A stretch of DNA of 64,000 nt from Pohlia nutans (taxonomy: Eukaryota > Streptophyta > Bryopsida > Bryales > Mniaceae), in the NCBI GenBank assembly GCA_022496805.1, contig CM040092.1, positions 20,416,113 through 20,480,112 of the forward strand, given 5' to 3'. Positions 315-58,484 of this stretch are shown here, in pieces. The translations under genes and the position numbers were made by a program. The notes below the pieces were generated by a model that saw only the letters and a list, made by a program, of their open reading frames with translations, did no database searches and was not told the DNA's origin. Each line of letters opens with the position of its first letter. Position 1 is the first letter of the stretch.

Positions 315-851
315 TTAACCCCTAAATGAGAGAGGGGATAAGGGCAAAACCTAGATGTGTTATAAAATGTTACCTCTACAACTTTAATGAAGTTCGGTCC
401 AAAAGAGAAAATGAGAAGCATGATGTTTAGTAATTATTTGTACAGTCAAACTTCCAAAAAGAGTTTTAGATACCCATTTAATGAATTTAGAAGCATCTAC
501 CATTGAAAATTCAGCAAAATTACAAATTTTATTTTTTAAATTTGAAATTTGGTACGATTGGTTAAAACTAGACATTTTATTCTAAAATTTAAAAAGGAAT
601 TTTTTTCAAATGAGAGAACATCATTAGTTTCCCAAAATAGTAAGTTTTATAATACTAGGACAATATTGAGGTCCTTGTCTTTGAAAAATTCTTTAGTGAA
701 CCTATATATCGCAAATTAAATGTATCAAACAACACTAGAACATGGTCTCTACCGCCAATTTTGACAAAAATCAAAACTTGAAAAATGTCATTTCCTGACC
801 ATAGGCAGTCACTACGACCAAAAAATGGTCAATCGGTCACTTAAGGGTTAA
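315..851 (+). mobile_element. TTAA element A1
   Basis: This is a short non-autonomous DNA transposon. It starts with TTAACCCCTAAATGAG and ends with a diverged inverse (CACTTAAGGGTTAA), and TTAA lies at both edges. The interior matches a second copy at 3164-3721 over nearly its whole length, including the stretch GAGAACATCATTAGTTT and the stretch CAAACAACACTAGAACATGG. No open frame of useful length is present. TTAA edges and CCC/GGG ends indicate the piggyBac type. Confidence 0.8.
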
Positions 852-1002
852 GGGGACCCATACTAATTTATTGACATTTCACATTATATAAATATTCACC
901 ATTATTGTACGAAAACACAGTAAATTTTTTATTTTTTTTTATAATAAAATTGTACAATAGAGGGTTCTTGCATAAGCTTCCACAAATGAACTAGACTGAA
1001 TA

Positions 1003-1316
1003 TACTAATGACTACCATTAGGGGAAATGTGGGGTCCCCAAAAGGCCCTGTAAGGCAGCTCGGGTTAGGTGATTGGTCTGCCCAAACACCCCTCCGATGG
1101 TGGCACCATTGGTCCTCGTCGCTGCCCACTAACAGTGTCGGAAACCGCAGTGCTAGCAGTGCTGGCAGTGTTGGCAGTGCTGGCAGCGTCGTGGCACCAT
1201 TGGTGCCAACGGGGAAAACGTGCAGGCACCACTGAAATTTCACTGCACGTGAGAAAACCAAAGGCCTTTTGGAGACCCCACCTTTCACCTAATGAGTGCA
1301 CTAGAACCACTAATCA
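1003..1316. mobile_element. inverted-repeat MITE, GC-rich
   Basis: The ends are inverted copies: GTGGGGTCCCCAAAAGGCC at about 1029-1047 faces GGCCTTTTGGAGACCCCAC at 1263-1281, and the similarity extends outward through ATTAGG. The middle holds a degenerate short tandem repeat of GGCAGTGCT (about 1150-1190) and two copies of GTGGCACCATTGGT. Long frames exist on both strands, but they follow from the GC-rich inverted structure and look non-coding. The exact termini and target duplication are uncertain. Confidence 0.6.
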
Positions 1317-1611
1317 TGACCGGGCAAGTAATAAATAACTTTAAATCAAATAGTTAGTGTCAAAATGGAACAAGTGTGAGGAACAAGTGTCGGAGGAGCA
1401 TGAGCAAAAAGAGACACCGCATGAGAACAGGGTACCTTCCTACAACAATCCCCCCTTCAATTGTAGCATGGTCATAACAAGGGTAATTTTTACACAGTAA
1501 GTCCCATTAATTATTTGGTCCCTTTAAAATCCCTATTCAGTGTAGTGTATTTTCTCGACAAAGTATGAGGTCATTTTGGATTAAATTCATGGCCATTTAA
1601 ACAAAAATTTG
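1317..1611. other. intergenic, nothing recognised
   Basis: AT-rich sequence without a gene or a clear repeat. Confidence 0.4.
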
Positions 1612-1786
1612 TGGCAATTAGCACACATTTCGTTAAAAATGGACTACTAGATTGGAAAAGTAATGGGGAGTGTTGCCTATAATAAAAATTGTAGAAAAAT
1701 TGAAGACCTATTTCTATTGAGAAGGGCAACACTCCCAATCACTTTTCTAGTCTGGTAGTCCAACTTTAACGAAATGTGTGTTAATT
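1612..1786. mobile_element. hairpin MITE
   Basis: Two arms of about 60 bases are inverted copies: CACACATTTCGTTAAA at the left returns as TTTAACGAAATGTGTG at the right, and GGGAGTGTTGCC returns as GGCAACACTCCC. A short AT-rich loop lies between them. The whole unit is about 170 bases and non-coding, which is typical of a MITE or foldback element. Confidence 0.7.
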
Positions 1787-2670
1787 GTGGATGAGAACAA
1801 CGAGCATTATAGGTTGCCTATTTTGAGGCCCTAGGGATATGTAAAAAAAATTGATAGCACTTTCAATAAATTATATAAATTACATTATTTCATGTCATAA
1901 AACTATAATTCCACTTGCTATAAATTTGTGTTGTAATTTTCCACATTCATCATTTTTTTAAAATTTCATTACATTTTCAAGACGACCCATCTCTTTCAAA
2001 TTGTGATACAAATGGGCGGTTTTAGGTGCCTCCACCATACTTGCTGATCTGGCTACCGATAGCAAATTATTGTAATGGCACATGAGGTGGCGATCCACGT
2101 GTCCCAGCTGAGCAAGTGGATTGCAACAGTTTTTGTTTTTTGTTTTTGATTTTAAAACGAATGATTGCAAGAGTTTTAAGTAGTTGTGCAACGACAATTA
2201 ATAATCCAAGCAAGTATGGAAGACCTAACTTCTCTATTTCCACGTGGCCATTGTCAATAATGCCTCTCAGCCACGTGTCCTCTTCGCATTCATCCTCAAA
2301 AAATCCTGACCCATTGTGATTCACGTTTCTGAAAACAAAGTTGACCTCGTTAATGTCACAGGCTACAGCAAACCAGTTTTTTTATTTTTCCAGTTGGTAG
2401 AGTGTCACACACCTTGAATGTAGCCAGGTAAGCAAAAACAAATAAAATGGACAGAATCATCCATAAATATATACTCATCCATAAAATTATTTAGTATAAA
2501 GCACTTTCATCCAAGATAATGGCGATTTTAATATAAAAGAATTAGAAGACTGGTGAATTCATCCACTTTTTTGCCAGTTCATTCTAGTATAAGAATAGTT
2601 ACTCCCAAAATCATGTAAGATTCTAAAAAAATTGCCAATTTTTTTTTTGGTTGGACTAAATGTACATCAA
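1787..2670. other. intergenic, AT-rich
   Basis: No gene found. The segment 2000-2330 is somewhat GC-richer and carries several CACGTGG/CCACGTG-type motifs, but short frames there do not resemble any protein I know. Confidence 0.4.
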
Positions 2671-3040: not shown

Positions 3041-3872
3041 CTTGGGGAGGTCACTATGCAAAAAAGTAAAAAACCACATGAGTTAAACTATAGGGTCCTT
3101 TTTCTTCATTACAGGAAAAAATTCTACCTCATTATAAAATTTTATATATAATATAGGATACTCTAACCCCTAAATGAGTAAATGATAGAGGGGTTAAGGG
3201 CAAAACCTAGATGTGTTATAAACTGTTACTTCTGCATCTTTGATGAGGTTTGGTCCAAAAGAGAAAATGAGAAGCATAATGTTTAGTAATTATCCGTACA
3301 ATCAAACTTCTAAAAATAGTTGTAGACACTCATTTAATGAATTTAGATGCATTTACCATTTAAAATTCACCAAAATTACAAATTCTACTTTTAGAATCTA
3401 AAATCTGGTATGATTGGTTAAAACTAGACACTCTATTCTAAAATTTAAAAAGGAAAATTTTTCAAATGAGAGAACATCATTAGTTTCCTGAAATAGTAAG
3501 TTTTACAACACTAGGACAATATTGAGGTCTTTGTCTTTGAAAATTCCTTAGTGAACCTCAATATTGCACATGAAATGTATCAAACAACACTAGAACATGG
3601 TCTCTATCTCCAATTTCGACAAAAATCAAAACTTGAAAAATGTCATTTCTTGACCATGGACAGTCACTGCTGTTTGGGCTATGACCAGAAAATAGTTGAT
3701 CGGTCACTTAGTAGGAGTTAAATTCAAGTAAGGAATAATTCAAGAATATATTTGGAATATATCTATAATAGTCTAGAATATACCGCAAATATTCCATTTA
3801 TATGATAGCCTACATTGAATACCCTCTTAACACACGTGGTTACACTAAATACATGCTAGTGACCTCCCCGGG
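3041..3872. mobile_element. hAT-like element K1 (hosts A2)
   Basis: The ends are CTTGGGGAGGTCACTA and its near-inverse TAGTGACCTCCCCGGG. A perfect 8-base duplication ACGCTGAC lies at 3033-3040 and 3873-3880. Eight-base duplications are characteristic of the hAT superfamily. About 274 bases belong to the element itself; the rest is the nested TTAA element A2. A second copy, K2, lies at 31059-31355 with the same ends and its own 8-base duplication. Non-autonomous. Confidence 0.8.
3164..3721 (+). mobile_element. TTAA element A2, nested in K1
   Basis: Near full-length copy of A1 (315-851). It begins CTAACCCCTAAATGAG, so the left TTAA has decayed to CTAA, and it ends GGAGTTAA. It interrupts the hAT-like element K1, so it inserted after K1 arrived. 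Confidence 0.8.
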
Positions 3873-4416: not shown

Positions 4417-5009
4417 TTAACCCCTAACGGACCAGGGTTTTTCATCAATTTCAAGCATTGATTTTACATTTACATTTTCATTTTTTTTGAGAATTTCATT
4501 TTTTTTCTCTTTGTAGCTAACACCAAATTGTGCATGAAGATGTTAAATTTTTCCCAAATTGATCTAGATAATGATTTTTTCCATCATTATAAATAAGATC
4601 ATCAAAAAAACTCACTTCCTACTTCTATTATGTTTTCTTTAAATCACTTCCTACTTCTATTATGTTTTCTTTAAATTTGGATGAAAAAACGAGTGTAAAA
4701 TTAGATTTTTTGAGTTTTTGAATTAGAAATATTCAATTGACACACTTTGGGAAAATAAACTATGATTGGATACAAACTCATTGATTTATGAATGGTCAAA
4801 GTTTTGTTGACTTTCAAATTTCAAATCTTATCATGGGTATATTTCATTTGATATTGGATTTTTTCAAAATCTAACTTTGCCAAAGTAAAGTTTGATGTAT
4901 TTGGGAGGGGTCTCTTTACCAAAAATTCCAGTTTAATTTTTTTTCAATTAAAATTTTCACATCAAAGGGAGTGATATAAGTTTTATATTGTAAAGCCTTT
5001 GGAGGTTAA
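4417..5009 (+). mobile_element. TTAA element B3
   Basis: Left end TTAACCCCTAACGGACCAGG, right end CCTTTGGAGGTTAA, both edged by TTAA. The interior is a diverged relative of B1 (46069-46607) and B2 (53051-53619). An internal 32-base tandem duplication lies at about 4614-4676. No coding potential. Confidence 0.65.
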
Positions 5010-5175: not shown

Positions 5176-5987
5176 TTAACCCTTTAGTACCCCATGAGAC
5201 CACATTGTGATAACTATGTGTCGAAAACGCAAATAACGGAAAATTCATGAACAATTGGATTTTGAATTGTGATGTTCAAAGTTGGAGACTTGTAATACAC
5301 ATCTTCTTAAAAAATAAAATTTTAATTTAGAGTTGTGCAACTATCAAAATACCTATGAACACAACGTGAAAATATACCGCAAATACTTGAAAATACCCTA
5401 AATACTTACAAATACAACACATGTAGTACTACTAACTATACAATATTTCTTTTGTTTGATATCTTATTTTTATTTATTTTTGATTGTGTTCTCTTGTTCG
5501 TGTTCCATTATTGTATGTATTCGGATCTTGATCAATGCACCAAATCCTTTCATATTTTAATGTATAGTTTTTTGTCCTAAACCGTATATGGATAAATCAC
5601 TATCACTTATAAAATTCACAATAAGTATGAGTCCGTTCTTAATAAGAAAGATTGCAACGGAGAGGTGTTGACATAGGTCATTGTTGAACCTCTTGACTTT
5701 CATTTTTGAAAATTTAACCCAAATTCTATTTAACTTTGAAATCACACACCATCCAAATGTCATTTCTGAGTGTGCATTACTTTAGTTCAAAGACATACTA
5801 CAATCTTCGAATCCAAAGGTCCAATCTTACCAAGGTTTAACTGGCACTTGTTTGATTAAGCTATGCTTACATTTATAATGTTAAATACTATTAATAATAT
5901 TCATAATTTGAACAGAGAGAGTTTTAAATTAAAAAAATGCCAAAAAATATGGTTTCTCCAAAACCACCCTAGGCACTTAAGGATTAA
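5176..5987 (+). mobile_element. TTAA element C1
   Basis: About 812 bases. Left end TTAACCCTTTAGTACCCC, right end GGCACTTAAGGATTAA. Copies lie at 52823-54074 (opposite orientation, interrupted) and 55272-56070. C1 carries an intact TTAA at 5730-5733 at the place where C2 is split by element B2, so it serves as an empty-site control. The interior holds only short frames. Confidence 0.8.
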
Positions 5988-6487: not shown

Positions 6488-8650
6488 CACCGTTGCTAGA
6501 GTGTATGGGAGAAGGAATTTATTTATTTTTTCAATTTTTCTTATTTTCTGTTTTCTTATTTCTTTTTTTGTGTGCCAAAAAGTACTTAAGGCTGCGTTTT
6601 TCTCCTTCCTCCATCCTTCAAAACAACATTCGAATGCCACATGCATTGAGCCCCTCGGCCACGCCCAAAAAAAAAAAAAAAAAAATCCCTTTTTTCCGGG
6701 GGCTGAAGGTTCGCGCGCGCGGACACCATTCTATTTTCTTCATGAGAGAACACAAATATGTTCTCCCATACTCCCATGACTGCCTTATATACTCTTAACC
6801 CCTAAGCGTCCCGGCGTCCATATTTTGGACGTTTTTGGGGGTACAGTCACCTTCGAAGTGCTGTAACTTTTGCAAAACGTGTCCGATTTTGCTGAAATTT
6901 TGAAAAAACTCCCCGCATGATGTATGGAATGTGTGGTATAAATTTCAGATCAATCCAAGATGAATTGAATTTTTGGTGATCATTTGAAAGTAGGTATGCT
7001 TTTTTTGGACAGTTCTGTGAATTTTGATGGCAGCAACTTCAGGGGCTTGTATCTCCTTCATCCCAAGTCCGTTTTCAATAAAACTTGTTGGGTTGAATTC
7101 CCCTTGAAGTCTAGTTATCATGGTAAAATTTTCAGGTCAATCCATGTTGTTATGAATGTTTGAGAGTCATTTTAGTGCACGGGTCTAGTTTGGACACTTT
7201 TTGCTTTTTGGTTCAAATGGGTCACTTTTCGGGCTACTTTTTGACATTGCAAGGCCATTTCAGGGCACATTAAATTTTTTCATGAGGATTTTTTGGTACG
7301 AATGTGTTTATATGATGATTTTGAACAACTTTATAGTTCAAAGTTTTTTCATTTGAGTAATTTTGAAAACGAATTTCACCTCTAACTGTGTTGCTAGGAA
7401 AATTTCAGCATCCTTTTTTAGCACTAAAACACTTTGATCTTGCAATCTATATGGCCAAATGACCCCAAAATTGATCCACATGATCTACAACATGTATGTT
7501 ACAAGATTGTACGGTTGAGATTTCTATACCTCACTTACATTTAGACCTATAACACATCAAAAGCAATGATGATTTTAAGCCCAAAAAAGCTAGGGACCTT
7601 TAGGGGTTAAGGTGGCTATGGGAGAGTATGAGAGACCACATTTTTTGTTCTCATGAGGGCTATAGGACAGAGGGTGTGCTGTCGCGCACCCTCGGCCACG
7701 TCCAAAACAAAAAAATTAATTAATTAATTAATTAATTGAAAAATTAAAAATTAATAAATTGAAAATTAATTTTAATTAATTAATTAATTAAAAATTTAAT
7801 ATAAAGAATTAAAATTAAAATTAAAATAACTAAGATTTCTTTTTTCTGGGATTTTCAAGATTTCCGAAATTTCCGGGATTTCGGGGGCGAGGGTCCCTGA
7901 GCGCGGACTCCATTCTATTTTCTCCATGCAAGAACACAAATTTGTTCTTCCATACTCCCATGGCCGCCTTATATACTCTTAAGGCGGCTATGGGAGAGTA
8001 TGAGAGAACACATTTTTGTTCTCATGAGGGCTGTAGGACAGAGGGTGTGCTGCCGCGCACCCTTAGCCCCTCGGACACGTTCAACAGAAAGAAAGAAAGA
8101 AAAAAAAAAAAAAAATCCTTTTTTCCGGGTTTCTCGGGATTTTCGAAATTTCCGGGATTCCAGGGTTGAGAGTCCGCGCGCGCGGACCCCATTCCATTCT
8201 CTCTTCAAGAGAATACAAATAGGTTCTCCTATGCTCCCATGGCCGCCTTATTTACTCTTAAGGTGGCTATGGGAGGGTATGAGAGAACTTATTTTTGTTT
8301 CCATGAGGATTGGAGGACAGAGGAAAGAGGATGCTCTGCCGCGTACCCTCTGCCACGTACCCTCTGTCCAATTTTATTTTTTTAAATTTATTATTTTATT
8401 ATTTCGTTATTTATTTATTTATTTTATTATTTTATACGAGATTTCGGGGGCATAGGGTTCGCGCTTGCGGACCCTCTTTCGTCCTCACCTTAAGCAACTC
8501 CTCAAGAGAACATATTTATGTTCTCCCATTCTCCTATGGCTGCCTTGTATACTCTTGAGGCGGCTATGAAAGGGTATGCAAGAACATACACATGTTTTCT
8601 TACGAACGGAAGAAAACAAAGGAGTGGCTATGTATTATTAGCGACCCGCA
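6488..8650 (+). repeat. tandem array of inverted-end units (M1-M5)
   Basis: Four units and part of a fifth are arranged head to tail: about 6488-6794, 7611-7978, 7983-8257, 8262-8556 and a partial unit from 8560. Each starts with a form of GGCGGCTATGGGAGAGTATG and ends with the near-inverse CATACTCCCATGGCCGCC, so every unit is itself an inverted-end element. Units are separated by a short spacer such as ATATACTCTT. Each unit carries a GC-rich inner block with CCGCGCGCGCGG-like sequence and a variable simple-sequence tract (poly-A, GAAA, or TTAA/AATT). The first junction is split by TTAA element L1. Confidence 0.75.
6795..7610 (+). mobile_element. TTAA element L1
   Basis: An 816-base element with ends TTAACCCCTAAGCGTCCCGG and CTTTAGGGGTTAA. 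It sits in the M1/M2 junction of the tandem array; the same junction is unoccupied at 7979-7982 and 8258-8261, each with a single TTAA. Inverted-orientation copies are L2 (33247-34055) and L3 (57675-58484). No transposase frame. Confidence 0.9.
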
Positions 8651-10567: not shown

Positions 10568-11363
10568 TTAACCCCTAAATGCCAACAGCCGTCTCCAGAT
10601 TTGAAGAATTGCAAAGATCATTATGAAATGCAACTGAGAGGAATATTTTGAAATTGATGTGTGAATAAAAGTTGTGCACTATAAATTTTAGATTCTATCC
10701 ATACTGTTAAATCTATGATTCATAACATAATAGAGCAATGTGAGCCAACACCCTTTTGCAATGGGACCACAATCTAGTTACAATTAGAAACTAGGTTTAC
10801 GTGGCATTCACACGGTAGTCCTAGTTTCATGGAATACAAATGGCATTCCTTCATTGCTTAGAAAAGTGAAGATTCTCTTTTGATCTAGTTTTCAAAAGGG
10901 TGCTCTGTTGCACTACTCTATTATGCTATCTTGTTGTCACCAATATTTTGTATAAAATTTGAAACTTAAAATTCAAAATTCTCTTATAATTCAATTATGA
11001 ATAAGATATTGACAATCAATGAATGAAATTTGTTGTGATGGGTTGAAATGTAATACCCAAAGTGTAGTGATTATTGGAGATTTTTTGGTTGCTTAATTTT
11101 ATGAATTGGCTTTTACAAGAGCACTTTTGAACAATTTTGAATTAAGATCGTAGAATCTTTTGGTGAATCACTACAACATGAAATGAGGCATAAAAATTTC
11201 ACAAATCATCCCCTTTCAAATCGGTGTACACATGCATGAAGCTAACTTCCTATAAAATCTATGGTAAAAAAATCACACTGCAAAAAGTGCATGACAGATT
11301 AGGAAATGTGAGTGAAATTTGTACATCGTCCAAAATATGGACGCCTGGGCACTTAAGGGTTAC
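10568..11363 (+). mobile_element. TTAA element F1 with an inserted MITE
   Basis: Left end TTAACCCCTAAATGCC, right end CACTTAAGGGTTAC (right TTAA decayed to TTAC). It shares its interior with six other F copies, for example the blocks GATTCTATCCATA and CATGAAATGAGGCATAAAA. Compared with those copies it is interrupted at about 10728-10927 by a short inverted-end element (see separate entry). Confidence 0.75.
10728..10927. mobile_element. MITE nested in F1
   Basis: CATAATAGAGCAATGTGAG at the left faces an inverse ending CTCTATTATG at the right, and ACACCCTTTTGCAA faces an inverse TTTTCAAAAGGGTG. Other F copies read straight through this point (ATGATTGCTATCACC), which shows that this is an insertion of about 200 bases. 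I could not define the target duplication. Confidence 0.65.
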
Positions 11364-11900
11364 TCCCTTTGTTCCACAAAAAGACCACAATACCGTTGAA
11401 ATCCATGGATTAACCCCTAACGTACTGACCCTTCAAACACAAGTAGATGCTAGCTTCAAAAATAGATATTAGTATGGCTCAAATGTATATGGAGTGTACA
11501 TGAGAGGACCATTGCAAGCATAAAATCTACCCAACAAATTTGACATATTTGCAGTTGGTATTATCTCCAATATTATCAACAACTCCCTATGATTAGAGAT
11601 TTATTGTAATTGGTAAAGAATTTAATAGGCTTACAAAGGTGACTTGGATGAAAGTCATCCGAGGTTGTATGAGAAAGTTGATAGGCTTTGCGTATGTCCG
11701 TGATCCAATTTCTGGATACTGGGACGTTTAGGGATTAAGATTAATTCCATAATTACAGAGGAGTATGTTGGAAAGTTTAGAGGTTAAGATTAATCCCGTA
11801 ATTACAGAGGAGTATGTTGACTGTAATGCAAATCCATGAATTAAGTGAGTATAGAGAGTATTTTGACTACCACAAAGTAATATATTTCATGAAAACATGA
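11362..11900. mobile_element. Stowaway-like MITE G2, interrupted and decayed
   Basis: Starts TACTCCCTTTGTTCCACAAA, matching the left end of G1, then AATCCATGGA, where it is split by TTAA element H1. It continues after H1 with GATTAATTCCATAATTACAG and GTGAGTATAGAGAGTATTTT, both paralleled in G1. The stretch after H1 is partly duplicated (about 11736-11770 and 11790-11822). Its right terminus is lost or unclear. Confidence 0.6.
11410..11738 (+). mobile_element. TTAA element H1, nested in G2
   Basis: A 329-base element with ends TTAACCCCTAACGTACTG and GGGACGTTTAGGGATTAA. It sits precisely at a TTAA that is single in the related MITE G1 (9860-9863). No coding frame. Confidence 0.8.
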
Positions 11901-12014: not shown

Positions 12015-12602
12015 TTAACCCCTAAACGTCACAACGTCCAGAAACTGGACAACTAACAAATTCAAACCCTTCTCACGTTCTCATCAATGTTTGGATGAAA
12101 GTCATCCATTTTTTTTGGAGAACTTCATGAAGTTGTTGTCTTATCTAATGGTTGGATTTAGTCATGCTTGATTACATATTTTTCTAAAATTACAAATGTA
12201 GAAGTATGTCAAGTCGTTGACCAAGCCAAAATTGCATTGACTGTAGTTCAAAAGTGGCCTTGTGAAAATGAGATCATAGATTTAAGAAACACAAAAATTT
12301 CAAAGACTCACCACATTTAAGAGTATCTCATTTCAAATTCATTCCAACAAATTTTACCCAAAAAATATTCAAATTCTGTTTGTAATCAAATTTAGAAGGA
12401 ATTTTTAATTTTAACTTTCAAATTTTATCATTAAATATTGGTGATAGTATTAGTGAATTGAACCGTACAGATGGAATCTACAATTCAAAATCTAGAACTT
12501 TCATTTGTATATCAATTCCAAAATATTCTTCTAAATAGTACTTTATGATGCTTTTTCTCAAATTGTCAATTCCAGGGACACCCTGGTACGTTTAGGGGTT
12601 AA
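12015..12602 (+). mobile_element. TTAA element I1
   Basis: A 588-base element with ends TTAACCCCTAAACGTCACAA and GGTACGTTTAGGGGTTAA. Its relative I2 (47405 to about 48220) is interrupted by J2 where I1 reads straight through. I1 is the last transposon before the RAPTOR gene and lies about 0.73 kb beyond its stop codon. Confidence 0.85.
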
Positions 12603-31727: not shown

Positions 31728-32312
31728 TTAGCCCCTAAATGCCTACAACCCTCTCCAAATTGGGCAATTTTGCAAAGATGCATTATAAAATGCAACTAAG
31801 AGGGATATTTTGAGCTTGATGTATGAATAAAAATTGTACATTATGAATTTTAGATTCTATTCATACGGATGAATCTATGATTGCAATCTCTAATATTTTC
31901 TATAAATTTGAAACTCAAAATTCAAAATTCTTTTGTAATTCGATTAAGAATAAGATATTGACAATCTGTGGATGAAATTTGTTGGCATTGGTTGAAATGT
32001 AATTCTCTAAGTGTAGTGATTTTTGGAGATTATTCGGTTGCTTAATTCTATGAGTTGACTTTTTCAAGAGCACTTTTGATTCGTTTTGGACTAAGATCTT
32101 AGAATTTTTTGGTGAATCACTGCAACATGAAATGAGGCTTAAAAATTTCACAAATCATCCCTTTTCTAATTGATTCACACATGCAAGAAGCTTACTTCTT
32201 AGAAAATCTATAGTAAAAAATTCAAATTGCAAAAAGTGCATGACGGATGAGAAATCGTGGATGAAAACTGTACATCGTCCAAAACATGAACGCTTAGGCA
32301 GTTAAGGGTTAA
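31728..32312 (+). mobile_element. TTAA element F2
   Basis: Left end TTAGCCCCTAAATGCC (TTAA decayed to TTAG), right end GGCAGTTAAGGGTTAA. The interior matches F1, F4, F5 and F6. Together with F3 it forms an inverted pair inserted into J3. Confidence 0.75.
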
Positions 32313-33246: not shown

Positions 33247-34055
33247 TTAACCCCTAAGCGTCCCTAGCTTATTTGGGCTTAAAATCATCATTGCTTTTGA
33301 TGTGTTATAGGTCTATATGTAAGTGAGGTATAGAAATCTCAACCATACAATCTTGTAATATACATGTTGTAGATCATGTGAACCAAATTTGGAGTCATTT
33401 GGCCATATAGATTGCAAGATCATAGTGTTTTAGTTTAAAAAATGGATGCTGAAATTTTCCTAGCAACACAGTTAGAGGTGAAATTTGTTTTCAAATGAAA
33501 AAACTTTCAACTATAAAGTAGTTCGACATCATCATATAAACACATCGGTACCAAAAAAAACTCATGAATTTTTTTTAATGTGCCCTAAAACGGCCTTGCA
33601 ATGTCAAAAAGTAGCCCAAAAAGTGACCGATTTGACCCAAAAAGCAGAAAATGTCCGAATTGAACCCATGCACTAAAATGACTCCCAAACATTCAGATCA
33701 ACATGGATTGACATGAAAATTTTACCATGATAACTAGACTTCAAGGGGAATCCAACCCAACAATTTTTATTGAAAACGAACATGGGATGAAGGAGATACA
33801 AGCCCCCAAAGTTGCAGCCATAAAAAATGCACAAAAACTGTCCAAAAAAAAGACCCCTACTTTCAAATCATCGCCAAAGATTCAGTACATCTTAGATTGA
33901 TCTGAAATTTTTACCACTCATTCTATACAGCACGCGGTTCGTTTTTCCAAAATTTCATTAAAATCGGACACTTTTTGCAAAAGTTACAGCTCTTCGAAGG
34001 TGAATGTACCCGAAAAAACGTCCAAAATATGGATGCCGGAACGGTTACAGGTTAA
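33247..34055 (-). mobile_element. TTAA element L2
   Basis: An 809-base copy of L1 in the opposite orientation. It has edges TTAACCCCTAAGCGTCCC and GGAACGGTTACAGGTTAA, the latter with a decayed GGGG run. No coding frame. Confidence 0.85.
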
Positions 34056-35126: not shown

Positions 35127-35129
35127 TGA

Positions 35130-35249: not shown

Positions 35250-35252
35250 TGA

Positions 35253-37581: not shown

Positions 37582-37824
37582 TTAACCCTTAAACGACAAC
37601 GCCAGCCCCATGGGCTTGGTTTTAGTTTGGGAGAATCTTGCTCATAACTTCTACACCATTGCACCAAATGGGGTTTTTAAAATTCCAAACCGAGCACCTT
37701 AGAGAGATCTATACTTCTTTAGAATAAAGCTGAAGCAAATTAAACACAGAATCATGCTTAAAATGGAATTTAAGAGGAGATTTTGGATGTGGTATCAGGA
37801 AAGGAATTGTCGTTTAAGGGTTAA
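37582..37824. mobile_element. TTAA element E1
   Basis: A 243-base element with an 18-base perfect inverted end, TTAACCCTTAAACGACAA, with TTAA at both edges. The interior has no resemblance to the other families seen here. Confidence 0.8.
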
Positions 37825-40429: not shown

Positions 40430-40898
40430 ATCTACATTGTGGATTTTGAATTCTATCCATACGGTAAGATCTGCGATTGCTTTCACCAATATTTTTCTAT
40501 AAAATTTGAAACTTATAATTAAAAATTATTTTGTAGTCTGATTACAAATAAGCTATTGACAATTTGTGGATGAATTTTTTTGTGATGTGTTGAAATGCAA
40601 TACTCCAAATGTAGTGATTTTTGGAGATTTTTTTGGTTTCTTGATTTATGAGTTTACTTTTCAACAACACTTTGAGACTAAAATCTTTGACATTTTTGAT
40701 GAAACATTGCAACATGAAATGAGGCATAAAAGTTTCACAAATCATCCCCATTCTAATCGGATCACACATCCATGAAATTAACTTCCCATAAAAAATTTAG
40801 TAAAAATTCACGCTGCAAAACGTGCATGACAGATGAGAGAACAAAGTTTGCTAATGTACATCATGCAAAATATTAGTGGTTGGGAAAATAGGGGTTAA
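40430..40898 (+). mobile_element. TTAA element F7, left end missing
   Basis: Matches the interior of the F family from GATTTTGAATTCTATCCATA onward and ends ATAGGGGTTAA. The left third and left TTAACCCC end are absent, so this copy is truncated. Confidence 0.7.
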
Positions 40899-44597: not shown

Positions 44598-45258
44598 TTA
44601 ACCCTTAAGCAACCACACTACAGTTAACTGGTCAAGCCTCATCAATTTCTCGAATTTGAAAATACATTATACTAGCAAACGCCCTGTCGCAATGCACCAA
44701 CACTGCATTGGGAATCAATTGGGAACAAAAAACAGAACGTCTGAACTTCGGGAACGTAAAAAGAACTTGGGAACATTAAGGAACATGATGGGAACGCTAG
44801 GGAATGTGATGTGCAGCTTTGGGGAACAACATGGGAACTGTGGAGAACGATTTGAGAACATGATGAAAAATTGGATGAACGGTATGGATGTGGAATGTGG
44901 ATGATTTTGTGAGTGACGAATATCAAGTAGGGTAGTGATATGGTATCATGACATTGTGTACTTAATATGAGAGATTTTTCTTGTATTCTTCTCCTATAAT
45001 TTATTGTTATATTGATTTACCCTGATTTTTTCATAACAAAAATGAGTTTTATAAAAAAAATCAAAGTTGTTTTCTTGTAAAAATCATAGTAATTACAAAA
45101 ATGTTTACAATAGTATGAAAATTTAAGGAAAAATGTAAATATTAGTGATGAACAACAAGGTGTAGGTGGCATGCTTCTTGAGCTCACATAGAAAGAAATT
45201 CGGTAATTTTTTTTCTCTCTGTAGTGTATATTGGAATTTTCAGGTTTTTGAGCTTTAA
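44598..45258 (+). mobile_element. TTAA element N1
   Basis: Left end TTAACCCTTAAGCAACCACA. Much of it is the reverse complement of N2 (50031-50390), for example CAAGGTGTAGGTGGCATGCT and CATGCTTCTTGAGCT. The right side meets the TTAA of F4. The middle (about 44690-44930) is a degenerate GGGAAC-rich repeat absent from N2. Confidence 0.6.
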
Positions 45259-45829
45259 CCCCTAAACGTCCTCACCCCTCTCCAAATTCGGTAGTTTTGC
45301 AAAGATGCATCATAAAATGCAACGCAGGGGGATATTCTGAACTTGATGTATGAATAAAATTTGTACATTATGAATTTTAGATTCTATCCATATGGTTAGA
45401 TCTATGATTGCTATCACCAATATTTTGAATAAATTTTGAAACTCAAAACTCAAAATTCTTTTGTAATTTGATACGAATAAGATATTGACAATTTGTGGAT
45501 GAAATTTGTTGTGATTGGTTGAAATGTAATACTTTAAGTATAGTGATTTTTGGAGTTTTTTTGGTTGCTTGATTATATGAGTTGACTTTTTTAACAACAC
45601 TTTTAGATTGAAATCTTTGAAATTTTAGGTGAATCACTTTAACATGAAATGAGGCATAGAAATTTCAAAAATCATCCCCTTTTTAATCGGATCACACATG
45701 CATGAAGCTAACTTTCCATAAAATATAAAGTAAAAAATCCACACTACAAAAAGTCAATGATGGATGAAAAAATTGTGTTTGATTCTGTCCATTGTCCACA
45801 TTCTGGACGGTTGGACGTTTAGGGGTGAA
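45255..45829 (+). mobile_element. TTAA element F4
   Basis: Ends TTAACCCCTAAACGTCCTC and GGACGTTTAGGGGTGAA (right TTAA decayed to TGAA). The interior is collinear with F1, F2, F5 and F6. Confidence 0.85.
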
Positions 45830-46068: not shown

Positions 46069-46607
46069 TTAACCCCTAAAGGACTGTGATTTTTTTCTTG
46101 TTTTTGAGCATCGATTTCTTCTCTTTCTATTCATTTTTTTGATGACTAATACCAATCTTAACATTACAAAAAAAATTAAAGATTTTTCTGGACTAATTTA
46201 ACAATTCTTCCCAAGTCTCCAAAGACAATCAGAAAATGTCATAAAAGATTGACATTTCATTTTTTCACTTCAAACGCTATAAACTTGCAATTTGTATAGT
46301 CAAATTCTATGAAAGATTTACCATGCATTCTTTGGGTAGTCTACAGCAAGATCCTACAATTAGAGATGCAAAAATCATGTTTAAGGTTAATTTTAAGTCC
46401 TGCCCAGATTGCCCATTCTCCCAAAGAAACCTCTTTCTGTCCATAACTTTCACTTATGAAGTCGGAATCAAAAATAAAATCGAATCCCCATATTTGTATG
46501 GACTTACCGAATTCACATAATGTTTTTCAAAAAACCAGTATAAAATTTGACACCTTGGAAACCTATCGAAATGTTCTATTTAGGACACTTGGTCCTTTAG
46601 GGGTTCA
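46069..46607 (+). mobile_element. TTAA element B1
   Basis: Ends TTAACCCCTAAAGGACTG and GGTCCTTTAGGGGTTCA. Its reverse-oriented copy B2 is nested in C2 at 53051-53619. Confidence 0.8.
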
Positions 46608-46816: not shown

Positions 46817-47408
46817 TTAACCCTTAAACTCCTAAGAGACCATTTTTTAGTTGCTACCTGTTTTTTTATGGGCTGCCTGGAACAAAAAAAGTTTTTGAAA
46901 AAAGAAAATATGTTATAAAATATTACATCAAATGTACTTTCCAACGCAATTTGAATTATGTCAATCCAACTTAAACTCTAGCAAGGAGATTTTTTCAAAT
47001 TGAATCACCTCAACATTGTCATAGTGTTGTAAAATTTTCTATTTGGAGAAAGTAATGACAATCCTTCCATCATTTCTTTTGATTTATTAAAATTTACAAT
47101 AAATAAATAAACCAATTTTAACCAATCACGCTAAATTTTAAACCCTAAAAGTGAAAATTATAATTTATACAATTTTTCAAAGGTCAATGCTTTTATATTC
47201 ATTCAAAAAAAATCTAAAGTCTTTTTTGTAAGTTTGACCGCATGGATAATTTGTAGAGATGATGCCCTATAGTTTTTTCTATCGAACCAAACTTCATTAA
47301 ACATATGGAAGGCCTTTATAGCACATTTATGTTTGTCCAAATCATCTTTGAAAAAATATTATAGCACATTTATGTTTGTCCAATATCCCTGAGGCTTTTA
47401 GGGGTTTA
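46817..47408 (-). mobile_element. TTAA element A4 (diverged)
   Basis: Edges TTAACCCTTAAACTCC and GGCTTTTAGGGGTTTA. Resembles A3 in reverse (for example GTTGTAAAATTTTCTATTTG). A near-duplicated piece, TAGCACATTTATGTTTGTCC, appears twice close to the right end. Its right edge is shared with I2. Confidence 0.6.
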
Positions 47409-48220
47409 CCCCTAAACGTCACAGCGTCCAATTTCTAAACAACTAACAGATTTGAGCTCGCCCTACGTTCTCATCAATGCTTGGATGAAGTCATTCAATT
47501 TTTTGGAGATACTTCAGCAACTGAAGTCGTTGTCCTATCTTATGGTTGGATTTAGTGATACTTGAGTACGTATTTTTTTTAACCCTTTTAGGACCAAGAG
47601 GCCAAATATGGCTTCATGTTTTTCTTAGCAGTTTTGAGTGGGTTCTATGTGAAGTTTCTATTGTTCAAATTTATTTATGTTTTTGGTCAACACATGCAAT
47701 GTTCTTTACTAATTCTGGTGATATAAAATTTGGTCCTATCTGGATCATACTTTTCATTATATGAATGATTGAATTTGTCATTTTTAAACGATGAATTCTT
47801 GGTCCTGAAAGGGTTAAATTACAAATGTAGAAGTATGTCAAGTTTGTTGATTAAGCCAAAATTGCATTGACTGTAGTTCAAAAGTGGCCTCGCCAAAATG
47901 AGGTCATAAATTTAAGGAACACAAAAATTTCAAAAAATCACTACGTTTAAGAGTATCTCATTTCAAATTCATTCGAACAAAATTCATTAAAAATAAATAA
48001 AATTTTGTTTGTATTCAAATTCAAAAGGTATTTTTTAATTTTAACTTAAATTTTTTATAATAAAATATTGGTGATAGTATTGATGAATCCAACTGTATAG
48101 ATGGAATCCAAAATTCAAAATCTAGAACTTTCATTTGTATATCAATTCCAAAATATTTTTCTAAATAGTAATTTATGATGATTTTTCTCAAATTGTCAAT
48201 TCTATGGACACCCTGCTACT
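47405..48220 (+). mobile_element. TTAA element I2, interrupted by J2, right end lost
   Basis: Starts TTTACCCCTAAACGTCACAG (TTAA decayed to TTTA) and matches I1 on both sides of the nested J2 element. After GGACACCCTG the similarity stops, so the right terminus is missing. Confidence 0.8.
47579..47817 (+). mobile_element. TTAA element J2, nested in I2
   Basis: A 239-base element with ends TTAACCCTTTTAGGACCAAG and CTTGGTCCTGAAAGGGTTAA, TTAA on both sides. Copies: J1 56067-56280, J3 30409-32364, J4 about 51649-51852. Confidence 0.85.
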
Positions 48221-49101: not shown

Positions 49102-49678
49102 TTAACCCCTTAACGTCCTCACCCTGTCCAAATTGGGCAGTTTTGCAAAGATGCATTATAAAATGTAACTAAGAAGGATATTTTGAACTTGACATATGAA
49201 TAAAAGTTGTACATTATGAATTTTAGATTCTATCCATACGGTTAGATATGCGATTGCTATCACCAATATTTTCTATAAAATTTGAAACATAAAATTCAAA
49301 TATATTTTGTAATTTGATTACGAATAAGATATTGACAATTTGTGGATGAAATTTGTTATGATGGGTTGAAACGCAATACTCTAAGTGTAGTGATTTTTTT
49401 GAGATTTTTGGTTGCTTGATTTTATGAGTTGACATTTTCAAGAGCACTTGTAGACTAAAATCTTTGAAATTTTTGATGAAACACTGCAACATGAAACGAG
49501 GCATAAAAGTTTTACAAATCATCAACTTTCTAATTGGATCACATGTGCATGAAGCTAACTTCCCATAGAAAATTCAGTAAAAAATTCACACTACAAAAAG
49601 TGCATGACGGATGAGAAATTTTATAGTTTGCTTTTGTATATCATGTAAAATATGCATGGTTGGGTAGTTAGGGGTTAA
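49102..49678 (+). mobile_element. TTAA element F6
   Basis: Ends TTAACCCCTTAACGTCCTC and GGGTAGTTAGGGGTTAA with TTAA on both sides; 577 bases, collinear with F2 and F4. Confidence 0.85.
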
Positions 49679-49679
49679 T

Positions 49680-50030
49680 GTAAAAAATGTTTTGGTTGCA
49701 TTAGGCTCGACTCTTAGTGTAAAGGGATTGGGCCCAAAGAATGGTTTTCGACCAATGAGAAGCGAGGATTTTAGCGTGTTTGCACATCAATTTAGGTCCT
49801 CAATTGTGATACTTTCATCTAGATTGTAGATGAAGTCATCATAATTGAACGATAATTTGCTCAAATGGATGAATATTTTGTCGATAAAAAAGTATGTTTT
49901 GTCAACCGAAAAAGGTTGAGCAACATGCAACTTGAAATGTACCCTGGTAAGGAATGTATAATTGCCCTAGTAACTTAACACTAATGACCACCAAAATTGT
50001 TAAAATTGTGTTATTTGATAGCACTTTAAA
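49680..50030. other. intergenic, nothing firm
   Basis: Only the decayed inverted segment mentioned for the 48849 hairpin is visible. Confidence 0.35.
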
Positions 50031-50390
50031 GCTTAGATCCTTAAAATTCCAATGTACACTGCAGTAAATGCTTTTCTACATAATTTCTTTTTATGTAAGC
50101 TCAAGAAGCATGCCACTTACACTTTGTTGTTCATCACTATTATTTACATTCTCCCTCAAAAAAAATATACTATTTTAAACATGTTTGTAATTATTGTGAT
50201 TTTTACAAGAAAAAAAAATTGAAAAATCTTATAAAATTCATTTTTATTAACATAATTGTGAAAAAACCAGGAGAATCGGTTCAACAATAAATTATATGTG
50301 AAAAATATCAAAAAATTATAATGTATTTTATAATGTGAGAGATTGATAAGGTTTGACTGGGTAACTGTAGTGTGGACGCTTAAGGATTAA
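50031..50390 (-). mobile_element. TTAA element N2
   Basis: Right edge GTGGACGCTTAAGGATTAA. Reverse-oriented relative of N1, lacking its GGGAAC-rich middle. The left edge is approximate. Confidence 0.6.
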
Positions 50391-52822: not shown

Positions 52823-54074
52823 TTAACCCTGAAGTGCCCAGGGTGGTTTTAGGGAAACCAGAGTTTTTTGGTGCTTCTTTTTCTTAAATTATGGACACTA
52901 TTAATAGTAAATTGTAAGCATAGCTTAATCAAACAAGTGCAGGGTAAACCATGATAAAATCAGACTGTTGGATTGGAAGATTTTAGTATGTCTTTGAACT
53001 GTATAATGCACACTCAAAAATGAGATTTTGGAGGGTGTGTGACTTTGAAGTTAATCCCTAAAGGACCAAGTGTCCTAACTAGGACATTTCAGTGTTTGGG
53101 TAGGTTCCCACGGTGTTAATTTCTAATTTTATTTTTTGAAATAAATTATGTGAATTTGGTATATCAATAAAAAAAATGGGGATCTAATTTTCTTTTGATT
53201 CCGACTTTTTAAGTAGAAGTTATGGAGCAAAAGGGGTTTTTTTTGGGGGAGAATGGGCAGTGCGGGCATGACTCAAAATAAACCTTAGAAATTACTATTT
53301 TTGATCTTTAACCGTAGGATGGTGATATAGATTACCAAGAGAGTGCATGGTAAAATTTTCATAGAATTTGACTATACAGATTGCAAGATTATAGCGTTTG
53401 AAGTGAAAAGATGAAATTGCAGTTTTTTTCGATATTTTTTGAACGTCTTTGAAGACATAGGAAAAACTGTTAAATTGGTCAAAAATATTCTTAAATTTTA
53501 TTTAAATGTTTCATTTGGTATTTCTATCAAGAGGGAAAGAAACATTCCCAAAACAATGGATAGAAAGATGTGAAAATGATGCTCAAAAACAAGAAAAATT
53601 GCGGTCCTTTAGGAGTTAAATAGAATTTGGGTTAAATTTTCTAAAATGAAAGTGACGCAGTTCAACAATGACCTTTGTTAACACCTCTCCCTTGTAATCT
53701 TTCATATAAAGAATGGACTCACACATAATTACTATGAATTTTATAAGTGAGATTGACTTATCCATGTACAATTTAGGACAAAAAATTATAAGTTGAAATA
53801 TGAAAGGAGTTGGTACATTGATCAAGATCGGAATACATACACTAATGGAACATGAACATGTGTATTTGTAAGTATTTATAGTATTTTCACATTTTGTTCA
53901 TAGGTATTTTCATACATCTGCAAATTGAAAATTTACTTTTCTACAAGTTGTATATTACAAGTCTTGAACCCTGAAAATCACAATTCAAAATCCAATTGTT
54001 CATGGATTTTCCGATATTTGCATTTTCGACACATCAGTGACCACAATGTGGTCTCCTGAGCACTAAAGGGTTAA
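52823..54074 (-). mobile_element. TTAA element C2, interrupted by B2
   Basis: Edges TTAACCCTGAAGTGCCC and GAGCACTAAAGGGTTAA. Reverse-oriented copy of C1 and C3. Split at TTAA 53051-53054 / 53616-53619 by element B2. Its right TTAA (54071-54074) is also the left TTAA of D1. Confidence 0.9.
53051..53619 (-). mobile_element. TTAA element B2, nested in C2
   Basis: Ends TTAATCCCTAAAGGACC and GGTCCTTTAGGAGTTAA. Reverse copy of B1. C1 and C3 show the empty site with a single TTAA, so both the boundaries and the duplication are proven within the window. Confidence 0.92.
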
Positions 54075-54500
54075 CCCTTAAGTGCGCAGGTGGACTATAG
54101 TGGTCCATGGTTCAGCTCATATTGTGAAAAACTTGTGGCTAATGGTTGAATTGAACTGGATGTTGAACATCAAAGTTCTGTGCATTGTAATGTAGAGAAT
54201 TGTGGACTTTTAAAAAAAAAAATAGAATATTTTTGTAGATTTTGTGGCCTGATGAATGGTTGTATAAATACGAGTGTAGATATTCCTCTAGAATGCACGC
54301 ATATAAGTAATTCTTTGGTGAACTAAATCATCTCACAAAATTCTACCAAAATTCCCACATCTCATTGTTCCATACGCATGTGTGGCGAAAAAATTTCAGG
54401 TTCAAAAAGTCATTGTTGGGGCATTAACTTATTGGCATTACCAAAAAGACCTCCTTGTATTCACTTCCTTCAAACGTACATCTGTGCATTTAAGGGTTAA
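54071..54500 (+). mobile_element. TTAA element D1
   Basis: A 430-base element with ends TTAACCCTTAAGTGCGCAG and TGTGCATTTAAGGGTTAA. Single copy of its family here. Joined to C2 through one shared TTAA. Confidence 0.8.
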
Positions 54501-54546: not shown

Positions 54547-55275
54547 TTTTACCCCTAAATGCCCACAACCCTCTCCGGATTAGGTAGTTTTGCAAAGACG
54601 CATTATAAAATGCAACTACCAGGGATATTTTGAACTTGATGTATAAATAAAAGTTGTACACTATAAATGTTAGATTCTATCCATATAGCTAGATCTATGA
54701 TTGCTATCACCAATATTTTTCTATAAATTTTGAAACTTAAAATTCCAAATTATTTTGTAATTCAATTACGAACAAGATATTGACAATTTGCAAATGAAAT
54801 TTGTTATGATTGGTTGAAATGTAATAATCTAAATGTAGTGATTTTTGGAGATTTTTGGTTGCTCAATTCTACGAGTTGACATTTTCAAGAGCACTTTTGA
54901 ACTATTTTGAACTAAGATTTTAGAAATTTCTAGTGAATCAATGCAACATGAAATGAATAATAAAAATTTCACAAATCATCCCCTTTCTAATTGGATAACA
55001 CATGTAGGTAGCTAACTTCCATAACACTAGTAGGATTTTGGTCCTTTAGAACTGGTCTTTTGTTACTTGAATGGTCCAAAACGAATTTCTTTTTAAAGAA
55101 TTGAGTCACAAAGGGCCATTTGAGTCACAAAGGACCAGTTATAAAGGACCAAAATCCTACTAGTGTAAATCTATATTAAAAAATCCACACTACAAAAAGT
55201 GCATGACGGATGAGAGAACATGGATGAAATCTGTACAATGTTCAAAAAATGAACGCATGGGCAGGTAGGGGTTAA
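54547..55275 (+). mobile_element. TTAA element F5, hosts a CACTA MITE
   Basis: Left end TTTACCCCTAAATGCCC (TTAA decayed to TTTA), right end GGGCAGGTAGGGGTTAA. Interrupted by the CACTA-type hairpin at 55025-55165. Its right TTAA is shared with C3. Confidence 0.85.
55025..55165. mobile_element. CACTA-type hairpin MITE, nested in F5
   Basis: A 141-base element, ends CACTAGTAGGATTTTGGTCC and its inverse, flanked by the 3-base duplication TAA (55022-55024, 55166-55168). Same terminal CACTAGTAG as the element at 35130 but a different interior. Confidence 0.88.
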
Positions 55276-56070
55276 CCCTTTAGTGCTCAACAAACCAGAT
55301 TATGGTCACTGTTGTGTCAAAAATACAAATAAAAAAAGTCCGTGAAGAATTGGAGTTCGAATTTTGAAGTTCAGATTTGGAGACTTATAATACACATCAT
55401 CTAGAAAATGAAAATGAAAATTCGAGTTGTGCAACTTTCAAAACACCTAAGAACACAAGGCGAAAATATTGCAAATATTTGAAAATACTGTAAATACTTA
55501 CAAATACAACACATGTGCTATGTGGTATTCTTTGTGTTTGGAAGTTTGATGTCTTGTTTTATTTTTTTGGATTGTGTTCTCTTCATGTTCCATTAGTGTA
55601 TGTTTTCGGATCTTCATCAATGTACCAACTCCTTTCATATTTTAATGTATAATTTAGTTCTAAACCGTACATGGATAAGTCACTCTCACTTATAAAACTC
55701 ACAAGAATTATGTGTGAGTTTGTTCTTGACATGCAAAATTGCAACGGAGAGTTGTTGACAGGTCATTGCTGAAATGCGTCACTTTCATTTTAGAAAATTT
55801 AACCCAAATTCTATTTAACTTTGAAGTCACACACTTTCCAAAATCTCATTTTTGGGTGTACATAATACAGTTCAAAGACATTCTATAATCTTGTAATCTG
55901 ACCATTGTATGACTCTAAGTTTAGCAAAATGTCTCCACTCCAGTTGAATATACAATTGTACGGTTACTTTCTTTTTTAACCCACTCTTTTCTGGCAGTAT
56001 CAATAATGATGGAAAATCCTACTGTAATTTAGTGCACCCAACTACCGTACCATGGGCACTAAAGGATTAA
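55272..56070 (+). mobile_element. TTAA element C3
   Basis: Ends TTAACCCTTTAGTGCTC and GGGCACTAAAGGATTAA. Same orientation as C1. Carries an intact TTAA at 55815-55818, the empty counterpart of the B2 insertion. It shares its left TTAA with F5 and its right TTAA with J1. Confidence 0.88.
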
Positions 56071-56280
56071 CCCCTCAAGAACCAAGAAACCGAAATTGGA
56101 CCTTATGTTTTTTAAAGCAGTTTTGAGTAGGTCCTGTGTGAACTTTGGACCAAGGCATGCAATATTCATCATTCATTTAGATCATGTAAAATATGGATCC
56201 TTGTGAACTATATTTACCATAATATGATTGATTGAATTTGTCATTTTTGAACTATGAATCTTTGGTCGTTTAGGGGTTAA
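56067..56280 (+). mobile_element. TTAA element J1
   Basis: A 214-base element with ends TTAACCCCTCAAGAACCAAG and CTTTGGTCGTTTAGGGGTTAA-type right end (written here across two words: CTTTGGTCG, TTTAGGGGTTAA). The most compact J copy. Confidence 0.85.
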
Positions 56281-57461
56281 TTACATTATTGATATTGAAG
56301 TTGTTTGTATTGTCTCAATATTGACTAATCTTAAAAATTGAAATCCACTTTTAAGGCTTAAATTAATTATGAAATGAAATGAATTCTTAACGTCCACTGA
56401 GAGGCCCATGGCCCAAGGAACTAGCAAACACAAAGTTGAACCCCTTGTGATCGGTGCTCAATGACATGCTTTAAAAATTTACTTAGAAAATTTACTGCTT
56501 TTCCATTGTTTTAGGTGTGAAAAGATCAAGATGTTTCGCTTTAATGTTATCATAGTAGGGGCAATGAAAGATGAAATGGGATTCGGTTTCGACACCGGAA
56601 GTGTACATTTTGCAATCTTGGTTATCTTGGTTTGTCCAAGTTCTAGCTCCAAGTTGTCGATTGATGTCCTACATGATGCGATAGTATGACATTGAAGCAT
56701 ACAATGGATTTCACAGAGGTACAGTTCTAGTTTATTGGTAGGTGAATGGTTACATTCCATGCTTGTATCCATAAGTGACATTTGACATCCCACAATTCAT
56801 AGCCTTTACGTCGTAATATAGAAGACAATTTTGGTAACTTCTTAAAAAAAATCCTATCATTCAAAAATGTAGAATATGATTATTGTACCCAAAAGATTGG
56901 CTCAATAGTCCCTGCCGAATATTAAATTTTCTTGCTGAATTGGTGCAAATATTCTCTGAATTCTACGAATATTCTCTAATCTTTCTAAGAAAATAATTTC
57001 TTAAAAGTTTTGACATCTCTTTGTGTAATTAGTTTTTGTTCACCCTGCCTTGCCTTCCACATATGGTATTGCCTTTTATTGGTATATTCTGTTACCATCT
57101 TTGAAGTTTTCTATGAAACATCAAAGAAGTACCAAAATACACTAACAGAAATAAGAAACTATGCGACTGTTGGAATGGGCATGCAAGAAATTGTGGAGAG
57201 GGATTTCATAAGCGTTCAATTAATCATAAATTGTTGCAATCAATTAAAACATTAAACATTAGGGGCTTTGGAATTCACGATTTCTGTCCGACAAGAAGAG
57301 GCAATTTACAAATCTCACGGCTGGGGCTCTAGTTTTGCACGCAGTGGTTCATGGTCGGTTTCAAAATTTGCTTTGGGCCTGATTTAGAAAGTAACACTGA
57401 AATCTCAATCTCAAACTGGTACCCCACTTGATCAGAACTGTACCCTAAATGTATAAGGTAG
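56281..57461. other. intergenic, nothing recognised
   Basis: AT-rich. A minus-strand frame at 56479-56793 and a plus-strand frame at 57010-57255 have no features that I recognise. Confidence 0.35.
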
Positions 57462-57669
57462 GAGCACCCAATTCCAACAATGTACCCAATGCCAATAATT
57501 TCAACACATAGCATTCATTTTAGAACGCAAATCTTTGCACATCATATAGCCTTAATTGTTTGTTGACCAAAATGATAAGCTATCAATGGTCTACTTAGAT
57601 TTGCATTCTAAAATGAATGCCATGTCTAGAAATTATCGACATTGGGTACATTATTGGAATTGGGTGCTC
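57462..57669. mobile_element. hairpin MITE
   Basis: Arms of about 75 bases: GAGCACCCAATTCCAACAAT at the left faces ATTATTGGAATTGGGTGCTC at the right, and CATTCATTTTAGAACGCAAA faces TTTGCATTCTAAAATGAATG. TA-containing flanks suggest a Stowaway-type duplication, not proven. It ends 5 bases before L3. Confidence 0.8.
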
Positions 57670-57674
57670 TAACC

Positions 57675-58484
57675 TTAACCCCTAAGCGTCCCTAGCTTTT
57701 TTGGACTTAAAATCATCATTGCTTTTAATGTGTTATAAGTCTAAATGTTAGTGAGGTATAGGAATCTCAACCGTACAATCTTGTAATATACATGTGAATC
57801 ATATTTGGAGTCATTTGGCCATATAAATTGCAAGATCATAGTGTTTTAGTGTTAAAAAAGAATGCTAAAATTTTCCTAGCAACACAGTTAGAGGTGAAAT
57901 TCGTTTTCAAAATTACTCAAATGGAAAAACCTTGAACTATAAAGTAGTTCAAAATCATCATATAAATACATTGGTACCAAAAAAAAACTCATGAAAAAAT
58001 TTAATGTGCCCTAAAATGGCCTTGCAATGCCAAAAAATAGCCCAAAAAGTGACCAATTTAACCCAAAAAGCAAAAAGTGTCCAAATTGGACCCGTGCACT
58101 AAAATGACTCCGACCAAACATTCAGAACAACATGGATTGACATGAAAATTTTACCATGATAACTAGACTTCAAGGGGAATCCAACCCAACAATTTTTATT
58201 GAAAACAAACATGGGATGAAGGAGATACAAGCCCCCAAAGTTGCAGCCATAAAAATGCACAAAAACTATCCAAAAAAAAAGACCCCTACTTTCAAATGAT
58301 CACCAAAAATTCAATGCGTCTTGGATTGATCTGAAAATTTTACCACTCATTCCATACAGCACGCGGTTCGTTTTTCCAAAATTTCATTAAAATCGGACAC
58401 TTTTGCCAAAAGTTACAGCTCTTCGAAGGTGAATGTACCCCAAAAAACGTCCAAAATATGGACGTCGGGGCGGTTAGGGGTTAA
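57675..58484 (-). mobile_element. TTAA element L3
   Basis: An 810-base reverse copy of L1 with edges TTAACCCCTAAGCGTCCC and GGGCGGTTAGGGGTTAA. Highly similar to L2 throughout. Confidence 0.9.

What the first reader, a model, noticed from the sequence alone, without database searches (positions are those of the whole stretch)
315..58484. About 31 TTAA-flanked, piggyBac-type non-autonomous elements in a plant-like genome
Short elements with TTAACCCCTAA...TTAGGGGTTAA ends and TTAA edges cover roughly a quarter of the window. At least ten internally unrelated families (A, B, C, D, E, F, H, I, J, L, N) share the same ends. TTAA duplication with CCC-type ends is the hallmark of piggyBac transposases, a superfamily well known from animals, fungi and some protists but, to my knowledge, seldom reported in land plants. 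A single active transposase acting on many unrelated interiors is the simplest explanation.
Basis: partly seen in the sequence, partly recalled or inferred. Interest (0 to 1): 0.9.

Follow-up and report, generated by a model that had tools for sequence, protein, structure and literature searches.

The report
TTAA-inserted piggyBac-type elements in moss
A stretch of what is most likely a moss genome is about one quarter made of short, gene-less jumping elements that insert at TTAA and carry piggyBac-type ends, a kind of transposon known best from animals.

Summary
I mapped 29 elements (16,549 bp, 25.9% of the window). Twenty-three have both ends recognisable, 16 of these with intact TTAA on both sides. 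TTAACCCYTAA occurs exactly 24 times, against 0 in the reversed sequence. The ends form a 14-bp inverted repeat, CCCYTAARYGNCCA; bases not used to pick the ends still match left to right in 65-78% of elements (control 25-28%). Four insertions have an uninterrupted relative in the window. Three show one exact TTAA, the fourth TAAA, so TTAA is a real 4-bp target duplication. The host is a land plant, most likely a moss: a hand-spliced RAPTOR gene matches Ceratodon purpureus at 88%. TTAA plus CCY ends of this length is the published piggyBac signature; Kolobok, which also uses TTAA, has RR/YY ends. The open gap is the transposase: none was detected in the window, and the own-genome search did not complete. 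Sampled copies differ by 7% or more, so current activity is not shown. Likely a piggyBac-type family set in a lineage where I found no report of it.

The parts
315..851 (+). element A1
   Evidence: TTAA both ends; 87% to A2
3163..3721 (+). element A2 (left edge CTAA)
46817..47408 (-). element A3, about 69% to A1/A2
4417..5009 (.). element B: clear left end only, right end uncertain
5176..5987 (+). element C1; carries an empty site (about 5730-5735) for element I2
52823..54074 (-). element C2, interrupted by element I2
55272..56070 (+). element C3; second empty site (about 55815-55820) for I2
6795..7610 (-). element D1, inserted in a tandem repeat
7979..7982 (.). empty site (single TTAA) for D1; a second one at 8258-8261
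33247..34055 (+). element D2
57675..58484 (+). element D3
10568..11363 (+). element J1 (with a 211-bp non-TTAA insertion)
31728..32312 (+). element J2
45255..45829 (+). element J3, shares TTAA 45255-45258 with H1
49102..49678 (+). element J4
54548..55275 (+). element J5, carries a CACTA-like 143-bp insertion; shares TTAA with C3
30612..31487 (-). element J6
40433..40898 (+). element J7, left end missing
11410..11738 (.). element E; empty site at 9860-9863. A 49-bp tandem unit follows, so the right edge may instead be 11787
12015..12602 (+). element F1; empty site (TAAA, about 12184-12187) for K1
47405..48219 (+). element F2, interrupted by K1; right end not typical
37582..37824 (.). element G
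44598..45258 (+). element H1, one CCC end only
50026..50390 (-). element H2, one CCY-type end only
46069..46607 (+). element I1
53051..53619 (-). element I2, nested in C2
47579..47817 (+). element K1, nested in F2
56067..56280 (+). element K2, shares TTAA with C3
30409..30615 (+). element K3, partial, abuts J6; right edge uncertain
54071..54500 (.). element L, shares TTAA with C2
12900..24679 (-). host RAPTOR gene with introns (3' limit approximate); free of the elements
59524..62100 (-). host Ulp1-type SUMO protease gene (limits approximate)

Best explanation
These are non-autonomous cut-and-paste DNA elements (MITE-like, about 0.2-0.9 kb) of a land plant, most likely a moss, moved in trans by a piggyBac-type DDD transposase encoded elsewhere in the genome. 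Shown: a shared 14-bp TIR (CCCYTAARYGNCCA), insertion at TTAA with TTAA duplicated, several interior families with the same ends, and insertion into each other and at each other's edge TTAA. Inferred: the transposase recognises the TIR, cuts next to CCC, excises the element through a TTAA-overhang intermediate and joins it to a new TTAA, as for known piggyBac. Unrelated interiors are kept because only the ends matter for mobility. Present activity is not shown.
For: Empty sites for D1, I2 and E with a single exact TTAA, and for K1 with TAAA (flanks of E re-aligned, 54 bp on the left). Motif excess 24 to 0. TIR matching at positions 13-18, not used for selection: 15-18 of 23 elements against a 25-28% control, near background from about position 19-20; with one copy per family, to remove kinship, 4-9 of 10. 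PiggyBac TIRs of 12-19 bp with CC[C/T]T ends and TTAA TSD (PMC2872659, passages); that paper's coral MITE family III TIR CCCCTCAGTGTCCG agrees at 11 of 14 bases with the lone end at 42575, and its MITEs also form tandem arrays. Six junctions here share or abut one such tetramer (45255, 54071, 55272, 56067; 47405 reads TTTA; 30612 uncertain). Host: RAPTOR 88% to the moss Ceratodon purpureus, next by score 74%.
Against: No transposase or remnant detected in the window: an HMM built from 107 of the 120 fetched piggyBac proteins (those over 500 aa; the organism-named ones are insects) gave best E 1.2, tblastn best E 0.37; an insect-based model could miss a divergent plant one. No element exceeds about 0.9 kb once nested insertions are discounted. 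The piggyBac protein search listed only the best 120 of 1186 hits, so plant relatives could not be seen. Superfamily assignment rests on ends and target site alone.
Confidence: 0.73

Rival explanations
1. A different or undescribed DDE/D superfamily with TTAA targeting and CCY ends, for instance a Sola-type transposase, moves them.
For: Sola has 4-bp TSDs and is reported from the moss Physcomitrella (PMC10741241, passages; PMC9033089 table passage). No transposase was detected here.
Against: Termini and TIR length fit the published piggyBac description. The passages read gave no TTAA+CCC signature for Sola, but the founding Sola paper was not held, so this was not tested properly.
Confidence: 0.15
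2. Kolobok-type elements, which also duplicate TTAA.
For: Same TSD; Kolobok is known from some algae (PMC9587614, passages).
Against: Kolobok termini are 5'-RR...YY-3' (same passages), the opposite of the YY...RR ends here: C or T at both first element positions in 55 of 55 ends tabulated (most ends had been chosen by motif).
Confidence: 0.03
3. The stretch is animal DNA or a chimeric assembly, so the elements are not in a plant.
For: piggyBac is best known from animals; the window's source is not named.
Against: Elements lie on both sides of a RAPTOR gene that is moss-like, one ending at 12602 just beyond it. A Ulp1 gene at about 59.5-62.1 kb bounds them on the right; among its 11 hits the only named land plants were a lycophyte and a clover, and no named moss was seen, so that bracket is weaker. 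CACTA-like insertions also fit a plant.
Confidence: 0.04
4. Not mobile elements: interstitial telomere-like CCCTAAA repeats or other chance AT-rich motifs.
For: The end motif contains CCCTAAA, the plant-type telomere unit (recalled).
Against: Paired inverted ends, family copies ending at TTAA, and four empty sites.
Confidence: 0.01

Closest known systems
piggyBac/TTAA MITEs, e.g. coral CMITE families (PMC2872659, passages)
   Same: TTAA TSD, CC[C/T]T-type ends, 13-14-bp TIR, several families, tandem arrays; CMITE III TIR CCCCTCAGTGTCCG matches the lone end at 42575 at 11 of 14 bases
   Different: CMITEs are about 100 bp with a conserved interior, and one family matches a found autonomous element; here interiors differ between families, sizes are 0.2-0.9 kb and no autonomous partner was found; host is a land plant
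piggyBac of Trichoplusia ni (IFP2)
   Same: TTAA target, 14-bp TIR (PMC10140906, passages), CCC ends (recalled)
   Different: IFP2 is 2,472 bp and encodes a 594-aa transposase (same passages); no coding sequence detected here
Kolobok superfamily
   Same: TTAA TSD
   Different: RR/YY termini instead of CCY/RGG
Sola superfamily
   Same: 4-bp TSD; reported from a moss
   Different: target sequence and end signature of Sola not tested here

Membership tests
piggyBac superfamily | 4-bp TTAA target site duplication | tested here: met
   empty sites for D1, I2, E exact; K1 TAAA
piggyBac superfamily | CC[C/T]T-type termini | tested here: met
   55 ends, positions 5-9: C49/T6, C52/T3, C54/T1, C33/T20/G1/A1, T52/A2/G1; most ends were selected by this motif, so the stronger support is 24 exact against 0. 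One paper notes many bee piggyBacs starting CAC instead (PMC10140906), so this feature is usual, not universal
piggyBac superfamily | TIR of about 12-19 bp | tested here: met
   left-right agreement through position 18 counted from TTAA, i.e. 14 bp of TIR
piggyBac superfamily | DDD transposase (DDE_Tnp_1_7, PF13843) in an element with the same ends | tested here: inconclusive
   none detected in the window; own genome search unanswered 11 times
piggyBac superfamily | footprint-free excision | not testable with these tools
   needs population or bench data
Kolobok superfamily | 5'-RR and YY-3' termini | tested here: not met
   pyrimidine at the first two element positions in 55 of 55 tabulated ends, most of them motif-chosen
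Sola superfamily | 4-bp TSD | tested here: met
   TTAA
Sola superfamily | Sola transposase and its target preference | not tested
   founding paper not held; no sequence at hand

The most novel reading that the evidence does not exclude
A bona fide piggyBac transposon lineage has lived and diversified in a moss genome, amplifying many families to about a quarter of this stretch while sparing the RAPTOR gene in it. It would be a well-evidenced natural piggyBac in a land plant, either ancestral or acquired by horizontal transfer.
Probability: 0.6. Interest if true: 0.72.

Novelty: new member of a known kind. Interest (0 to 1): 0.55.

Why it matters
The standing of piggyBac in land plants is unsettled in what I read. 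Two plant TE reviews list plant TIR superfamilies without it (PMC9033089, PMC10741241; passages; the word does not occur in either main text). A third plant review does name PiggyBac in a list of superfamilies taken from a general classification (PMC10794571, passage). Two insect or animal papers say in passing that it occurs in plants (PMC10813416, PMC10140906). A fern paper's table counts 1,230 PiggyBac matches covering only 122 kb (PMC6890710, passage). A dense, multi-family set with proven TTAA duplication in a moss would put the question on firm ground, open the question of horizontal transfer, and point to a plant-adapted transposase for footprint-free engineering.

Tried and rejected
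Own-genome search for PF13843: requested 11 times, never answered. A generic scan for 20-bp inverted repeats at TTAA pairs gave little (10 pairs; the control tetramer AATT gave 20, the other twelve controls 0-8) because the TIR is only 14 bp. Pfam on 20 open frames (80 of at least 85 aa are listed) gave two HEAT-type hits below their curated cut-offs in one RAPTOR exon, and Peptidase_C48 in another frame. The T. ni piggyBac query found 1186 proteins; only the best 120 are shown and those with an organism name are insects, so it could not reveal plant members. A D-family end scanned in viral contigs and a shared end pattern in genome contigs: no match, one scan each. tRNA and Rfam: nothing. Kolobok rejected on its termini; telomere-like repeat reading rejected on empty sites. 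Ten paper searches (listings capped, so not every paper was seen) showed me no report of piggyBac MITEs in a moss; only open-licence papers are held. Term look-ups in three moss papers (PMC13120521, PMC9946827, PMC10619864) gave no DNA-transposon breakdown.

Full report
What is there. The motif TTAACCCCTAA with at most one mismatch occurs 42 times against 1.77 expected. TTAACCCYTAA occurs exactly 24 times against 0 in the reversed sequence; at two mismatches there is no excess, 50 against 82, so weak ends were accepted only with alignment support. Self-alignment shows repeated families, most of whose full copies end at TTAA. I list 29 elements, 16,549 bp or 25.9% of the window, none in the 13.5 kb of the RAPTOR region; 19 of 29 have TTAA at both mapped edges, three of them (B, H1, H2) with one edge lacking the CCY motif. 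Twenty-three have both ends recognisable, 16 of these with TTAA intact on both sides. Six are one-ended or uncertain (B, F2, J7, H1, H2, K3).

The inverted repeat. Comparing left and right ends of the 23 two-ended elements, agreement stays high through position 18 counted from the first T of TTAA (positions 13-18: 15 to 18 of 23; control from random TTAA pairs 25-28%; position 12 is lower, 11 of 23) and falls near background from about positions 19-20. Positions 13-18 were not part of the motif used to find ends. Family copies are not independent; with one copy for each of ten families the same positions match in 8, 8, 9, 7, 4 and 7 of 10. The TIR is thus about 14 bp, CCCYTAARYGNCCA. A weaker GCGTCC-like block follows at positions 20-25 in several families.

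Target duplication shown directly. D1 (6795-7610) sits in one unit of a tandem repeat; two neighbouring units carry the same flanks with one TTAA at 7979-7982 and 8258-8261. I2 (53051-53619) interrupts C2, and the other C copies, C1 and C3, read straight through with one TTAA. E (11410-11738) has both its flanks, 54 bp on the left including TTAA and about 45 bp on the right, meeting at one TTAA at 9860-9863; its right flank is itself a 49-bp tandem pair, so the exact right edge is ambiguous between two TTAAs. K1 (47579-47817) interrupts F2; F1 reads TAAA there, one base off. Six junctions between neighbouring elements share or abut a single tetramer, as expected if an element's own edge remains a target: four read TTAA, one TTTA, and one (K3/J6) is uncertain.

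Host. Minus-strand exons between about 24.7 and 13 kb form a RAPTOR gene: 1070 bits to the RAPTOR1 chain 5wbi (Arabidopsis, recalled) against 852 to the best mTOR-RAPTOR chain (human, recalled). Against 5.8 billion proteins the hand-spliced 719-aa model is 88% identical over its full length to Ceratodon purpureus (1456 bits); the next by score, Closterium, is 74% over half the length (1102 bits), and listed flowering plants range from about 57% to 78% over varying coverage (120 of 1877 hits listed). Only proteins within a length range are candidates, so other mosses may be missing; the moss reading rests on this one gene. A Ulp1 protease gene lies at about 59.5-62.1 kb; the named ones among its 11 hits are a lycophyte, a clover and green algae, no named moss.

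Mechanism and membership. TTAA duplication, CCY ends and a TIR of this length are the hallmarks given for piggyBac (PMC2872659, passages). Kolobok shares TTAA but has RR/YY ends (PMC9587614, passages). The abstract of PMC7351741 (start seen in the listing) describes TTAA-specific integration and footprint-free excision by piggyBac. I infer trans-mobilisation by a piggyBac-type transposase. The transposase itself is missing: 2101 six-frame pieces of at least 20 aa against an HMM made from 107 fetched piggyBac proteins gave best E 1.2, and tblastn best E 0.37. Membership is therefore by signature, not by gene.

Age. Pairwise identity between copies is 0.74-0.93, K2P 0.08-0.32 (17 pairs in six families; other families or copies not compared there). 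The set is the product of past, probably repeated, rounds; present activity is unsupported.

Novelty. Two plant reviews omit piggyBac and a third names it in a general list. Two animal papers mention plants in passing. The C-fern table has small PiggyBac counts. I saw no paper on piggyBac-type MITEs in mosses in ten searches of open-licence papers with capped listings; that is limited evidence of absence.

Noticed in passing
55024-55166 and 35129-35250: Two near-palindromic insertions with ACACTAGTAGG/ACACTAGTAGAAAA ends, CACTA-like; the first interrupts element J5 with a probable 3-bp TAA duplication.
   Followed up: partly
57454-57677: A 224-bp fold-back repeat abutting D3 with ends TAAGGT..., i.e. 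a purine after a TAA edge; possibly a separate (Kolobok-like?) MITE.
   Followed up: no
9076-9443, 29495-29857, 1615-1787, 48851-48987: Further fold-back elements (137-368 bp) of unassigned type.
   Followed up: no
10721-10931: A 211-bp insertion in J1 with CATAACATAATAGAG-like ends and no TTAA, a different transposon type.
   Followed up: partly
27788-28937: Degenerate tandem array with a 20-bp core (AACATCTTGACCCTTTGTTG) and 84-92-bp higher units.
   Followed up: no
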